Translations under genes and position numbers: made by a program
From: a virus
IMG/VR virus record: IMGVR_UViG_3300030329_005082
Span: 1-64,000 of that record
Strand: one strand, 5' to 3'
Length of the DNA stretch: 64,000 nt
The notes under the pieces: model-generated
The model's input: the letters and a program-made list of their open reading frames with translations, nothing else
The model's database searches: none
What the model was told of the DNA's origin: nothing
Part shown: positions 3,064 through 22,323 of the stretch, in pieces
How the letters are laid out: each line of letters opens with the position of its first letter
Numbering within the stretch: position 1 is the stretch's first letter

Positions 3064-3447
3064 TCAGAATTCTTCGCAGGCTGGCTGGTTTGGGTCACAG
3101 TCTAAAACTGTTGGGAAGCCATTCTCATCGGGGTTTGTGATCAGATAATGCCTTACTTTGTAGTAACTCTCGTCGGGTCCGGCTGACAAGAGTTCTGCAT
3201 TAGTTTTGACACCAAAAACAAACTTGCAGATCCCGATGCGTTCGGTGACGCCCTTCTTGGTTTTGGGATCCTTTTCAGTCTTGGCAGCAAAGACCAGCAC
3301 CTTACAATAGCGGTTAAACTCTTGCATCTCCTTAGTGCGAACATCCAGGCGGCTACAGCAATCGTTAGATGCGTAGTGTTTGACTGGAGCAATCTTACAA
3401 CCGCTGACTGTCATGAATAGCAGAGATGTTAGAATAATATATTTCAT
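3064..3447 (-). CDS. Phage lipoprotein, four-cysteine family (copy 1)
   Basis: 127 aa from ATG 3447. The start is fixed by an ATGA overlap with the previous stop. Signal peptide MKYIILTSLLFMTVSGC ends in a lipobox, so Cys17 should be lipidated. The mature part has CC, then a C at the end of a helix-like stretch, then ICKFVFGV. The same spacing (CC..RL, F.R.C, ICK.V..V) occurs in the lipoprotein at 8479-8751, so the two are paralogues. Function unknown; an inner or outer membrane lipoprotein of the infected cell. Confidence 0.75.
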   Translation of the reverse strand: MKYIILTSLLFMTVSGCKIAPVKHYASNDCCSRLDVRTKEMQEFNRYCKVLVFAAKTEKDPKTKKGVTERIGICKFVFGVKTNAELLSAGPDESYYKVRHYLITNPDENGFPTVLDCDPNQPACEEF

Positions 3448-3749
3448 CGTTTCTTTTTTCTTGGGATCCCAGCCATGTCTAATAACATATTCAGTTCCCA
3501 TTCATTGAGTTTATCTAATTGTGTTTTGTATTTATCTTTTTTACAGGGTGCCGGCGATTGCTCACGCTTGAACTCTACCTTCGGAACCCACCCCATGTAA
3601 TACAAAACTGAGCGGAGAACACGAGGATCTTGACGCTTCAACATTTGCACGATTTGATGTGCTTTTGCTCGCACCTGGCGGTGGTTTAGTTTCTTCTTTA
3701 CGCTGTAATTTGGCATCGCCAACAGCACCGCTAAAAGCAAGCTAGTCAT
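3444..3749 (-). CDS. Small basic protein with hydrophobic N-terminus
   Basis: 101 aa. An apolar N-terminus MTSLLLAVLLAM is followed by a Lys/Arg-rich helical body. Its ATG 3749 overlaps the end of the 43-aa gene, and its stop overlaps the lipoprotein start (ATGA), so it sits in a coupled chain. The N-terminus could be a signal peptide or membrane anchor. I do not recognise the family. Confidence 0.65.
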   Translation of the reverse strand: MTSLLLAVLLAMPNYSVKKKLNHRQVRAKAHQIVQMLKRQDPRVLRSVLYYMGWVPKVEFKREQSPAPCKKDKYKTQLDKLNEWELNMLLDMAGIPRKKKR

Positions 3750-8478: not shown

Positions 8479-8751
8479 TCACCTCACATCATATACATAC
8501 TTACAAATATCTAAACCTTCTTTAATATTTCGTGATGCCCTCGGGTCATCATCAAACCGACCGTCCAAGAAAGCCAGCGCAATACAAACTCTTTCAAATC
8601 TTTTGAGTATCACGTCACGTTTGTGCAGCCGTTCACAGCATTGTTGGGGATCTGAAATCTTAGGTGCGGTGGCGCAGCCCCCGCTAAACAAAGCCATGGC
8701 TAAAAGGCACGCAACAAAGAAAAAAACCAACTCAGTGGCTGTTATTTTCAT
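8479..8751 (-). CDS. Phage lipoprotein, four-cysteine family (copy 2)
   Basis: 90 aa. Signal peptide with a hydrophobic core (LVFFFVACLLAMALF) and lipobox FSGGC, so Cys26 should be lipidated. The mature part repeats the cysteine pattern of the lipoprotein at 3064-3447: CCERL, FERVC, ICKYVYDV. Both copies are just upstream of tiny membrane proteins or a membrane protein, which hints at an envelope role. Confidence 0.75.
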   Translation of the reverse strand: MKITATELVFFFVACLLAMALFSGGCATAPKISDPQQCCERLHKRDVILKRFERVCIALAFLDGRFDDDPRASRNIKEGLDICKYVYDVR

Positions 8752-12905: not shown

Positions 12906-13213
12906 GTTTCCTCCAATCTTTTGAGCGAGTCTTCTGAATTCTCTGTATACCTGTTGAGAATATGTACATCTTCTGTAGATAGTTTAACATATATCTCGTC
13001 TTCACTTAAATCATTTTCAGACAGATCCTCAAGAACAAACTCCAACTGAGTAGACAAGCTCACGATTGCATAGGCATATGAGATTGCATCACGGATTGGA
13101 AACTCAGGATCAGCCTCTTCCACAAGAGCACACAGGTAATCCAAATCTGATGTCAGGCGCTCAGCAGCGTTGATTAGAGTATCTACTTTTATTCCGTAGT
13201 ACTCTTGACTCAT
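12878..13213 (-). CDS. Hypothetical acidic helical protein, 111 aa
   Basis: Acidic and helical (INAAERLTSDLDYLCALVEEA; EFVLEDLSENDLSEDE). It overlaps the lysozyme-like gene's stop by 4 bases, so may be translated with it. No recognised domain. Confidence 0.6.
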   Translation of the reverse strand: MSQEYYGIKVDTLINAAERLTSDLDYLCALVEEADPEFPIRDAISYAYAIVSLSTQLEFVLEDLSENDLSEDEIYVKLSTEDVHILNRYTENSEDSLKRLEETCGISLQNN

Positions 13214-13695
13214 CGCTTTACCCAGTTAGGGAATTTTCGCTTGAAGATCCCTCGCATTCTGTTTACCTTGTTTGCATACTGAACGATCTTTTCTTTGTTT
13301 TTTGATTTTTGCCAACGAGGTCCGCCATTGTAACACGCTGGCAAGTTGAGACCTTGGCACGCTTTATACTTTCGCATCTCTTTGAGGACGGTAGTGGCGG
13401 CGATGGTTGCATGGGCAGCACTTGACATATCTACCAAGAACCTCTGCTTACTTGTGTATCCCCACTTCTTTGCCCAGAAGCGGTAGTTGATTTGGAAGAT
13501 GCCGTAGTCACCAGTGTGTGAGACCTTGCCTGCTTTGACCCGTGACTCTACCCAAGCAAGGGCGACCATAAAGTAAGGATCTTCTCCTACGTCTAAGGAT
13601 TTGTCTATGATGACAGCAGCGTTAAGCTCTTGCTCTGTGTTGAAGTACGACGGGAAGTCGTAAGCTAGAAAAGACACTAATACAAACTCTATCAT
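13210..13695 (-). CDS. Lysozyme-like (lytic transglycosylase fold) murein hydrolase
   Basis: 161 aa. VALAWVESRV carries the catalytic Glu, followed by HTGDYGIFQINYRFW, the SLT/goose-lysozyme fold signature, and later LPACYNGG. The N-terminus MIEFVLVSFLAYDFPS is hydrophobic and may act as a signal-arrest or export segment. Cleaves glycan strands of peptidoglycan; candidate endolysin or virion-associated lysin. Its stop and start overlap the neighbouring genes. Confidence 0.85.
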   Translation of the reverse strand: MIEFVLVSFLAYDFPSYFNTEQELNAAVIIDKSLDVGEDPYFMVALAWVESRVKAGKVSHTGDYGIFQINYRFWAKKWGYTSKQRFLVDMSSAAHATIAATTVLKEMRKYKACQGLNLPACYNGGPRWQKSKNKEKIVQYANKVNRMRGIFKRKFPNWVKR

Positions 13696-17701: not shown

Positions 17702-19288
<1,587 letters not shown>

Positions 19289-19309
19289 TTATTTTCTCCC
19301 TTTTATTTG

Positions 19310-19840
19310 TCACCAAAAATACATCAACGAGAAGTTAGGTATAGGTCGTATACCACCGAACCCTACGCTCTTATTGTGGACCATCAACTGCACCGCTAAA
19401 GGCAACTCAAGCGATACCGCAAAGGACTTCCACCTTCTCTCAAGTCCGACACCCGGACCAAAAGATACAACCATCCCCTCATCAAGTGAGGTGCCTTCCA
19501 AAACTGGTTCCGGACAGCTTTCATCTGGTCGGCACTCTGGGTCTGACCACTGCTCTTCTGTCTGGCGATTATAAAAAGCTGCCAGACCCAAAGACCAATA
19601 AGCCCTGCCCCAACTCGTAGAGTTCAATGTGTGAAAAAGTGTTCCGCCAACAAAAACTGTTGAGTCCAGATCCTCGTCAATGATCGGAAGGAGTGAGACT
19701 TGCCAGCCCCTGCCGTCATCAAACTGTTTGCTGTAACCAAGCCCAACTCCGTAGGTTGATCCCGCAACAAAACCAATTCGCTGCTCATCTGCTGTCGCCA
19801 TCGCAGGCAACAATAAACTAATCATAAATAAATAACGCAT
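19310..19840 (-). CDS. Predicted outer-membrane beta-barrel protein
   Basis: 176 aa. Signal peptide MRYLFMISLLLPAMATADEQ with probable cleavage after ATA. The mature part alternates short amphipathic strands (GFVAGSTYGVGLGYSKQF; VVSFGPGVGLERRW) and ends in FSLMYFW, an aromatic C-terminus as required for barrel insertion. An extracellular-loop-like segment has two Cys (DPECRPDESCPE). Rare in phages. It could block further infection by altering the cell surface. It sits between groEL and the Dam-like gene. Confidence 0.75.
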   Translation of the reverse strand: MRYLFMISLLLPAMATADEQRIGFVAGSTYGVGLGYSKQFDDGRGWQVSLLPIIDEDLDSTVFVGGTLFHTLNSTSWGRAYWSLGLAAFYNRQTEEQWSDPECRPDESCPEPVLEGTSLDEGMVVSFGPGVGLERRWKSFAVSLELPLAVQLMVHNKSVGFGGIRPIPNFSLMYFW

Positions 19841-19841
19841 T

Positions 19842-20630
19842 CTAATTCTCCTTCACGTTCAAGATTAGTATTTCCTTAGACTTTTTGTCTGAAGACATAC
19901 CGTAACTCCACTCAGGATATACGATTTCATAATCTTTGTATAGCTCTAATATTTCAGGGTGAGGATTGTATGATATCACCCAGTTGTTTTTCTTTTTGAT
20001 TTCTTCCCCGAATCTTTCATGATCGAAGTCCTTATGCGCCGAACCCCTTTCACCGTATAGAGTAGACTTTTCCAAAAGATATGGTGGGTCAGCGTAGATA
20101 AAAGTTTCATCGTTGTGTCTTCCAAGGCTGTCAGCGAAGTCTGCCTGCTCCACAGTTAGAGCGGGACATGAGAAGTTTCTAAGGCGGTCAATGCTGCTTT
20201 GGGTGAACCGCTTGTCTGCGGCCTGTTGTGAGTATCCGCCGCTCATAGTTGCCCCGCTAAATGATGAGCGGTTGAGAGCATAAAACATGCAGGCTCTCAT
20301 CTCCCTCCAGAACAATAAGCGGTCATCATCTTCAGTGCTGGATTGCTTTTTTTGATACTCCTTGAACATCTCCTTTGTACAGGGATAGAAATAGTTCTCC
20401 AGCATGTTTGCAATATCATGCGGATGTTCCAAGACTTGCTGCCAGAAGTTGACAAGCGGCTCAAAGATATCATAGCCGTGAACTCTCACCCCTTGAGCAG
20501 CGTAATGAATCTCAATAGATCCGCCACCAAAAAAGGGACTGACAATTTCTGTCAGGTTTTTTGGGAAATAAGGTACGATATGTTTTAGTGCTCTAGACTT
20601 GCCGCCTGGGTATCTCAGTAGGGACTTCAC
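19842..20630 (-). CDS. Dam-type (D12 class) adenine methyltransferase
   Basis: 262 aa. LLRYPGGKSRALK at the N-terminus, motif I FFGGGS at 33-38, and the catalytic DPPYLLEKSTLYG motif. GTG 20630 is preceded by GAGGCAGG. Alpha-class N6-adenine methylases protect DNA or mark it for repair and packaging. This is the second DNA methylase of the window, with a different motif order from the one at 5527-6267. Confidence 0.93.
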   Translation of the reverse strand: MKSLLRYPGGKSRALKHIVPYFPKNLTEIVSPFFGGGSIEIHYAAQGVRVHGYDIFEPLVNFWQQVLEHPHDIANMLENYFYPCTKEMFKEYQKKQSSTEDDDRLLFWREMRACMFYALNRSSFSGATMSGGYSQQAADKRFTQSSIDRLRNFSCPALTVEQADFADSLGRHNDETFIYADPPYLLEKSTLYGERGSAHKDFDHERFGEEIKKKNNWVISYNPHPEILELYKDYEIVYPEWSYGMSSDKKSKEILILNVKEN

Positions 20631-21353: not shown

Positions 21354-21974
21354 TTACCCATTTAGGTGTTTCCTCAAATCTTTCTCGTCAATCAAAGTGT
21401 AAGTGAACCTGGGACCATAGAGCTTGGCTGACTGCCTGCAAAGCTTCATAAAAGCTTTGAAGTCTTCAACCTTTTTAAAGACCTGACAGCCGGCTGACCA
21501 TTTATTAATTGTGTAGGATTCTGTATAGGGGTTGCTTCTGTGGATGTTGATGCCAAAGTATCCCTCGTCTATCATCGTTGTTATGTTTTCATAATCTACA
21601 ACTTCATCTTTGTTGTTGTCGCGCCAGACTTTGACGGGTTTGGACTGGACTAATGCTTCGTAGTTATTTTGATGCTTGCCAAGTTGCCACGTGCCTCGGT
21701 ACTGACCTGGCACCAGCACGGCTGTACCCTTGGGGTTCATTGGGTTTTCCAGCCAGTACTTCCCTGGGTCGGTCGTAATCTGATAGCGGCGGTTCACCAT
21801 TACATCACCTTCACGATACATCACGAGCAGAAAATCATCAAAAGTATTTGTGCCCTGGTTGTCTCGGCGAACGCCAATTATATTAAGGTTCAGCTTTTTA
21901 TCAGGCGTGTCAAAAAACTTATAATCTTTAGCGGCAAAGTACGTCTTAATATTCTCAGGAGTCAGCAACTCCAT
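21354..21974 (-). CDS. L,D-transpeptidase-like murein enzyme
   Basis: 206 aa from ATG 21974; the frame continues upstream from TTG codons to 22061. The motif block FGINIHRSNPYTESY then KWSAGCQVFKKVEDFKAFM resembles the HxxG...S.GC active site of YkuD-fold enzymes, with a catalytic-type Cys. Before it, PGQYRGTWQLGKHQ. Could cut or make peptidoglycan cross-links. Start codon choice is uncertain because no clear ribosome binding site is seen. Confidence 0.65.
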   Translation of the reverse strand: MELLTPENIKTYFAAKDYKFFDTPDKKLNLNIIGVRRDNQGTNTFDDFLLVMYREGDVMVNRRYQITTDPGKYWLENPMNPKGTAVLVPGQYRGTWQLGKHQNNYEALVQSKPVKVWRDNNKDEVVDYENITTMIDEGYFGINIHRSNPYTESYTINKWSAGCQVFKKVEDFKAFMKLCRQSAKLYGPRFTYTLIDEKDLRKHLNG

Positions 21975-21981
21975 CAAGAGT

Positions 21982-22323
21982 TTAGGTTGGCTGGCAATTG
22001 TTGGGGTCGTCTTCTGGGTCCCTAAAACTCTCAGGAGAAGATCTAGTAATTGTTTCAACAACTTTATCTACCTCCTCACCAGCTTTCATTCTATAAAGAA
22101 GTTTATCACCATCCTCAGAAAACTTTAAGTCAGCAAGACCGAGCTTGTAATATGATAGCATCGTTAAATAGGTAGCTATATTAAAATCCTTATTTGCTGT
22201 TGCACATTCTCTTATCCATGCGACAACTCGCGCAGCGAAGAAAGCCTTCTCTGCGTCAATCAAGTTATCTTTTATGGCAACAAATCCATCTTGCTTGAGG
22301 ATTCTTACAATATTAAAGCTCAC
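21982..22323 (-). CDS. Hypothetical protein, 113 aa
   Basis: GTG 22323 overlaps the preceding stop (GTGA). Helical (DAEKAFFAARVVAWIREC) with a C-terminal Pro/Asn tail. No family recognised; lies among core-type genes. Confidence 0.55.
   Translation of the reverse strand: MSFNIVRILKQDGFVAIKDNLIDAEKAFFAARVVAWIRECATANKDFNIATYLTMLSYYKLGLADLKFSEDGDKLLYRMKAGEEVDKVVETITRSSPESFRDPEDDPNNCQPT

What the first reader, a model, noticed from the sequence alone, without database searches (positions are those of the whole stretch)
19310..19840. Phage-encoded outer-membrane barrel
Signal peptide, beta-rich mature part and a terminal aromatic residue indicate an outer-membrane protein. Candidates: superinfection exclusion, receptor masking, or uptake change. 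It sits between groEL and a methylase gene.
Basis: inference. Interest (0 to 1): 0.6.

Follow-up and report, generated by a model that had tools for sequence, protein, structure and literature searches.

The report
Phage-encoded small outer-membrane barrel protein
A large, uncultured (by origin probably marine) T4-like phage carries a gene for a small barrel-shaped protein that should sit in the outer membrane of the infected bacterium; phages of this kind gain, lose, replace and swap the gene, which suggests it alters the infected cell's surface, most likely to keep other phages off.

Summary
ORF 19310-19840 (-) is a real, conserved 176-aa gene with a Sec signal peptide (cut ATA|DEQ), an all-beta mature part and a perfect BAM-type C-terminus (PIPNFSLMYFW). 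Among 694 ORFs of this and related phages, only members of this family combine both signals. AlphaFold2 with 10 homologues gives a roughly 8-stranded beta protein (pLDDT 78, pTM 0.64); the nearest solved folds are OprF-N, CarO, NspA, OmpX and OmpA. No Pfam, PHROG or NCBIfam family matches. I found 17 other viral contigs and no close cellular homologue. The gene is accessory cargo. In its own lineage the site next to groEL holds the barrel (4 of 17 contigs), a 38-aa deletion relic (2), nothing (3), or unrelated genes (8). In two distant lineages it sits at two other sites, and its alleles have crossed between those lineages: 90% identical in genomes with median 60-66%, yet 63% where flanking genes are 88-90%. 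The barrel core is nearly invariant; the predicted extracellular loops vary. No invariant His argues against the known OM lipases and proteases. Surface change of the infected cell, probably exclusion of competing phages, is the best reading of function, but it is inferred. Phage-encoded OM barrels are a known kind; this is a new family.

The parts
19310..19840 (-). Gene for the 176-aa outer-membrane beta-barrel protein, stop codon included
   Evidence: ORF; 17 homologous viral contigs, 60-99% identity; dN/dS well below 1
19790..19840 (-). Sec signal peptide, residues 1-17, cut ATA|DEQ
   Evidence: Sequence; conserved AxA|[DET]EQ boundary with a different leader in L022
19490..19561 (-). Predicted long extracellular loop L3 (residues 94-117): variable, with indels and two cysteines in every homologue
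   Evidence: Mean pairwise identity 0.35 against 0.72-1.00 in the strands; strand limits; alignment
19313..19360 (-). Last strand with the C-terminal beta-signal PIPNFSLMYFW
   Evidence: Residues 166-176 invariant in all homologues
19848..19853 (-). Probable ribosome-binding site AAGGAG of the barrel gene, inside the end of the methylase gene
   Evidence: Sequence
19842..20630 (-). Upstream neighbour: D12-class adenine DNA methyltransferase (Dam-like); left border of the variable cargo site
   Evidence: Pfam PF02086 E=1.4e-30; relatives without the barrel
17702..19288 (-). Downstream neighbour: chaperonin GroEL; right border of the variable cargo site
   Evidence: Pfam PF00118 E=6.4e-66, PHROG 5725; relatives

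Best explanation
The gene makes a small outer-membrane protein that is exported by Sec, recognised by BAM through its C-terminal strand and inserted as an 8-stranded, probably closed barrel. Short turns would face the periplasm and a variable, probably disulfide-closed loop (L3) plus an acidic loop (L2) would face outward. It is accessory cargo, not a core gene: it is gained, lost, replaced by other genes at the same site and exchanged between phage lineages. The most likely job is to change the surface of the infected cell during infection, by covering or binding a phage receptor so that competing or sister phages, or free progeny, do not adsorb. Shown by computation: gene, signal peptide, beta-signal, conservation pattern, presence and absence, allele exchange. 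Predicted: the barrel. Inferred: outer-membrane location, loop orientation and the exclusion function.
For: Both export/assembly signals, only in this family. Barrel-like fold prediction and OM-barrel fold hits in the PDB and in viral proteins. Strand regions near-invariant while predicted outer loops L3 and L4 vary (pairwise identity 0.35 and 0.28). Cargo behaviour: empty sites, a deletion relic and replacement by FKBP, cupin or a small membrane peptide in the same lineage. Three different genomic sites and allele exchange between two phage lineages, AU test p about 1e-6. A gene that is dispensable but exchanged fits a role in competition between phages. Exclusion proteins acting at the outer membrane are well established for T5 Llp and Rtp45 (PMC9586334, PMC12685063).
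Against: No expression or localisation data; host unknown; nothing ties the gene to early expression. The known exclusion proteins cited are lipoproteins, not barrels. No receptor partner is identified. Cargo behaviour would fit other host-modifying roles equally well. The best model is of moderate confidence (pTM 0.64) and PDB matches reach only TM 0.3-0.5, with no PDB E-value below 0.001.
Confidence: 0.45

Rival explanations
1. Outer-membrane support or permeability factor: the barrel stabilises the envelope or helps nutrient entry in a long infection, like an auxiliary metabolic or maintenance gene (OmpA/OprF-like role).
For: Closest solved folds are OprF-N, CarO and OmpA. The barrel core is the most constrained part. 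The window phage also carries other housekeeping-type genes: groEL, a clpP-type protease, an ftsH-type protease and an IMP-dehydrogenase-like gene (for groEL; the others from sequence inspection).
Against: No periplasmic OmpA-type peptidoglycan-binding domain (only 159 mature residues). Small 8-stranded barrels are usually not pores. Many close relatives do without it.
Confidence: 0.25
2. Outer-membrane enzyme that edits lipid A or surface proteins (PagP, PagL, OMPLA or omptin type) and so removes the receptor.
For: Similar size to 8-stranded PagP and PagL; receptor editing is a sensible phage strategy (background knowledge).
Against: No invariant histidine anywhere in the family, whereas PagP, PagL, OMPLA, LpxR and omptins all need one (background knowledge). 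No match to any Pfam or NCBIfam family.
Confidence: 0.07
3. Lysis or release helper: a barrel that weakens the outer membrane at the end of infection.
For: Two to three genes away lies a protein similar to a PHROG endolysin profile (21354-22061, E=1.6e-17).
Against: In the other lineages the gene sits among nucleotide-metabolism genes; many relatives lack it, while lysis is essential.
Confidence: 0.08
4. Selfish or neutral cargo picked up from a host, with no strong benefit to the phage.
For: Patchy presence, an empty site and a deletion relic.
Against: dN/dS 0.03-0.22 and a near-invariant core in phages of several lineages; exchange between lineages suggests it is kept by selection; no close bacterial source found.
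Confidence: 0.1

Closest known systems
Small 8-stranded outer-membrane barrels (OprF N-terminal domain, NspA, OmpX, OmpA transmembrane domain); CarO also among the top fold hits
   Same: Size, all-beta fold, periplasmic N- and C-termini implied by signal peptide and beta-signal; top fold-search hits
   Different: About 10-16% identity in structural alignment, TM 0.3-0.5, no family HMM match; hhalign with E. coli OmpA finds nothing (E=0.47)
Annotated outer-membrane beta-barrels of uncultured Caudovirales and other phages (e.g. A0A6J5M8N4, A0A6J5LNL8; Synechococcus phage S-CBWM1 A0A3G1L3F6)
   Same: Phage-encoded, similar length, similar predicted fold (best E=9.5e-4, TM 0.47)
   Different: 11-15% identity; no shared sequence family; host and genome context unrelated as far as seen
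Lambda Lom / Ail-Lom family (PF06316)
   Same: Small phage-encoded outer-membrane barrel on the infected or lysogenic cell (background knowledge)
   Different: No Pfam match at E up to 10; here in a large T4-like phage, not a known prophage
T5 Llp, Cor and Rtp45 superinfection-exclusion proteins
   Same: Proposed outcome: block phage receptors at the outer membrane (PMC9586334, PMC12685063, PMC11436027)
   Different: Llp and Cor are small lipoproteins, and Llp acts from the periplasmic side; this is a barrel without a lipobox

Membership tests
Outer-membrane beta-barrel proteins (general kind) | Cleavable Sec signal peptide without lipobox | tested here: met
   AxA cut site conserved, no Cys at +1
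Outer-membrane beta-barrel proteins (general kind) | C-terminal beta-signal: alternating hydrophobic residues ending in an aromatic | tested here: met
   F-x-L-x-Y-x-W invariant; 10 of 694 ORFs have it
Outer-membrane beta-barrel proteins (general kind) | Closed antiparallel barrel of an even number of strands | tested here: inconclusive
   8 main strands, pLDDT 78, pTM 0.64; fold hits are OM barrels but TM 0.3-0.5; closure not inspected in coordinates
Outer-membrane beta-barrel proteins (general kind) | Located in the outer membrane | not testable with these tools
   Needs fractionation or heat-modifiability assay
Ail/Lom, OmpX, OmpA sequence families | Match to the family HMM | tested here: not met
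   No Pfam hit for the window protein at E up to 10, no NCBIfam hit, no PHROG hit; OmpA hhalign negative
PagP / PagL / OMPLA / omptin enzymes | Conserved catalytic His (and family HMM) | tested here: not met
   No invariant His in 9 distinct mature sequences; no HMM hit
Superinfection-exclusion proteins | Expression blocks adsorption or entry of a phage | not testable with these tools
   Wet-lab assay needed
Phage cargo (moron-type) genes | Present/absent at one site in close relatives; transferred independently of the core genome | tested here: met
   Empty sites, relic and replacements; discordant identities and AU test
Phage cargo (moron-type) genes | Own promoter and terminator | not tested
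   Only the T4-type late motif TATAAATA was searched: none near the gene

The most novel reading that the evidence does not exclude
A family of phage-only closed barrels whose sole job is surface competition between phages: near-invariant scaffold, swappable outer loops, alleles traded between phage lineages that share hosts. In one phage the gene has shrunk to a signal peptide joined in frame to the final strand; if that 38-aa product is still made, a secreted free beta-signal peptide could interfere with BAM itself.
Probability: 0.12. Interest if true: 0.75.

Novelty: new member of a known kind. Interest (0 to 1): 0.42.

Why it matters
Outer-membrane barrels encoded by lytic phages are annotated often but almost never tested. 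Here one family has enough natural variants (intact, absent, replaced, reduced to a relic, swapped between lineages) to argue from evolution that it is a competition or host-surface gene. If it is an exclusion factor, it would be a barrel-type exclusion protein, unlike the lipoproteins characterised so far, and its variable loops would point to the receptor involved.

Tried and rejected
Vibrio phage VP4B weak tblastn hit (E=0.3): lies inside an 860-aa protein, so chance. PDB sequence search: nothing relevant. Single-sequence AlphaFold: useless (pLDDT 41). Close bacterial homologues in 84,980 species genomes: none in two scans, but these need exact conserved peptides, so distant homologues are not excluded. 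Broad HMM search of bacterial genomes: the tool gives no relatives for a virus record and the E. coli K-12 locus is not held there. Further viral homologues: the set is saturated at 17 contigs by three independent peptide or DNA patterns. T4 late-promoter motif: 7 sites in the window, none near the gene, no conclusion on timing. Literature: no paper found on this family. Transfer between the window lineage and the other two lineages: suggested by 60-75% identity against a median near 40% for shared genes, but dS is saturated and an invariant core can make identity level off, so this older step is not claimed as shown.

Full report
WHAT IS THERE. The ORF at 19310-19840 on the minus strand codes for 176 residues. 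It begins one base after the stop codon of a D12-class (Dam-like) adenine methylase and ends 21 bases before a groEL gene; both neighbours are confirmed by Pfam. The window lies in an IMG/VR virus record of 178,630 bases. The phage is a T4-like myovirus judged by its T4-type baseplate protein and tail sheath; tail-sheath relatives in the phage collection are below 60% identity. The host is unknown.

EXPORT AND ASSEMBLY SIGNALS. The N-terminus is a typical Sec signal peptide with an AxA cut site. Across homologues the leader varies, in L022 completely, but the start of the mature part (EQRIGFVAGST) does not. The last eleven residues, PIPNFSLMYFW, are invariant and follow the F-x-L-x-Y-x-W pattern recognised by BAM (pattern from background knowledge). 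To ask whether this is chance I scanned 694 ORFs of at least 80 aa from the window and related phages: 47 have a signal-peptide-like start, 10 have a beta-signal-like end, 8 have both against 0.7 expected, and all 8 are this family. Members share ancestry, so the count shows specificity rather than eight independent events.

FOLD. Alone, the protein gives no usable model (pLDDT 41). With 10 mature homologues AlphaFold2 gives pLDDT 78 and pTM 0.64, no helix, and strands at mature residues 2-10, 15-22, 27-36, 43-54, 61-76, 101-119, 123-138 and 141-158. Foldseek against the PDB puts OprF-N, CarO, NspA and OmpX among its first four hits (probability 0.85-1.00, E 0.002-0.02, TM 0.3-0.5). Against viral proteins the best hits are annotated as outer-membrane beta-barrels of uncultured phages (best E 9.5e-4). 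These scores support an outer-membrane barrel but do not place the protein in a family. No Pfam, PHROG or NCBIfam family matches the window protein, and hhalign against E. coli OmpA is negative.

CONSERVATION ON THE FOLD. Counting strands from the periplasmic N-terminus, the predicted outward loop L3 (mature 77-100) has mean pairwise identity 0.35 with indels, and L4 0.28; the strands have 0.72-1.00. Each homologue keeps two cysteines in L3, consistent with a disulfide in an oxidising compartment. No histidine is invariant, which argues against the PagP, PagL, OMPLA and omptin types of enzyme.

CARGO BEHAVIOUR. (i) Same lineage, same site: of 19 loci whose GroEL is 77-99% identical to the window's, 17 show the junction upstream of groEL. 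Four carry the intact barrel gene (L084, L086, L098, L100); L092 and L093 carry a 38-aa in-frame relic; in L095, L097 and L099 the methylase runs directly into groEL; L088 and L089 have an FKBP-type isomerase; L087 and L094 a cupin; L091 and L102 a 54-aa membrane peptide; L085 and L096 an unrelated 306-aa protein. A profile search of 15 of these records finds no intact copy elsewhere, though the records are partial. (ii) The relic joins the signal peptide (MRYLLMISLLFPAVATA) to the last strand (GNQFHFVGIRAIPNLSLMYFW), so about 138 residues have been lost. L092 and L093 are identical there and count as one event. (iii) Other lineages: the gene lies between a DHH-type phosphoesterase-like gene and a dCMP-deaminase-like gene (G007, G009, G013, G014), or upstream of an epimerase-like gene (G004, G015, G017) (these names are from sequence inspection, not HMM tests). 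At the G004 site the homologous flanking genes are adjacent in G009, an empty site.

ALLELE EXCHANGE. G014 and G009 share the same site, with flanking genes 88-90% identical, but their barrels are only 63% identical. G014's barrel is 90% identical to that of G015/G017, which lies at the other site in genomes with median identity 60-66%; there it outranks every other shared gene. Likewise G004 and G007: barrel 87%, genome median 52%. Grouping the barrels by genomic site is rejected (AU p 2e-6 and 7e-7). Between the window lineage and the others the barrel is 60-75% identical while other shared genes have medians of 32-42% (GroEL about 42%, replicative polymerase about 39-41%). This suggests an older transfer, but dS is saturated, so a levelling-off of identity in a constrained core is an alternative.

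MECHANISM. Shown: a conserved, selected, exported-type protein with a beta-signal, behaving as exchangeable cargo. Predicted: a small outer-membrane barrel. Inferred: it acts at the surface of the infected cell. A dispensable gene kept by selection, traded between competing phages, with variable outer loops on a fixed scaffold, is what one would expect of a factor in phage-phage competition such as receptor shielding. T5 Llp and Rtp45 show that outer-membrane exclusion proteins exist and how they block receptors (PMC9586334, PMC12685063), but they work by a different architecture. I give exclusion or surface shielding 0.45, an envelope or permeability role 0.25, and the rest less.

NOVELTY. 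Phage-encoded outer-membrane barrels are a known kind. This is a new sequence family of that kind, with an unusually clear evolutionary record.

Noticed in passing
L092:3869-3985 and L093:3869-3985 (+): 38-aa in-frame relic of the barrel gene: signal peptide fused to the last strand and beta-signal. Probably decay, but a secreted beta-signal peptide could in principle act on BAM.
   Followed up: partly
window 19288-19842 and loci L084-L102: The site upstream of groEL is a variable cargo slot in this phage lineage: barrel, FKBP-type isomerase, cupin, small membrane peptide or nothing.
   Followed up: yes
window 3064-3501 (-) and 8479-8751 (-): Two small proteins with lipobox-like starts (TVSGC, FSGGC); candidate phage lipoproteins such as outer spanins or exclusion lipoproteins. 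No Pfam match.
   Followed up: partly
window 13210-13695 (-): Transglycosylase SLT domain (PF01464, E=6e-9), next to a ClpP-like protease gene; possible lysis or tail enzyme.
   Followed up: partly
window 21354-22061 (-): Protein with PHROG matches to an unknown family (E=2.8e-45) and an endolysin profile (E=1.6e-17); no Pfam match.
   Followed up: no
L022:8164-8496 (+): TnsA-like endonuclease domain (PF08722, E=5e-11) about 1.7 kb downstream of the barrel gene in G015; could bear on how the allele moved.
   Followed up: no
L016:5373-5987 (+): A further protein with a signal-peptide-like stretch sits directly before the barrel gene in G004, absent from the homologous site in G009; no Pfam match.
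   Followed up: partly
G004, G005, G006, G014, G017: Relatives of the tail-sheath gene appear as two tandem copies in these phages.
   Followed up: no
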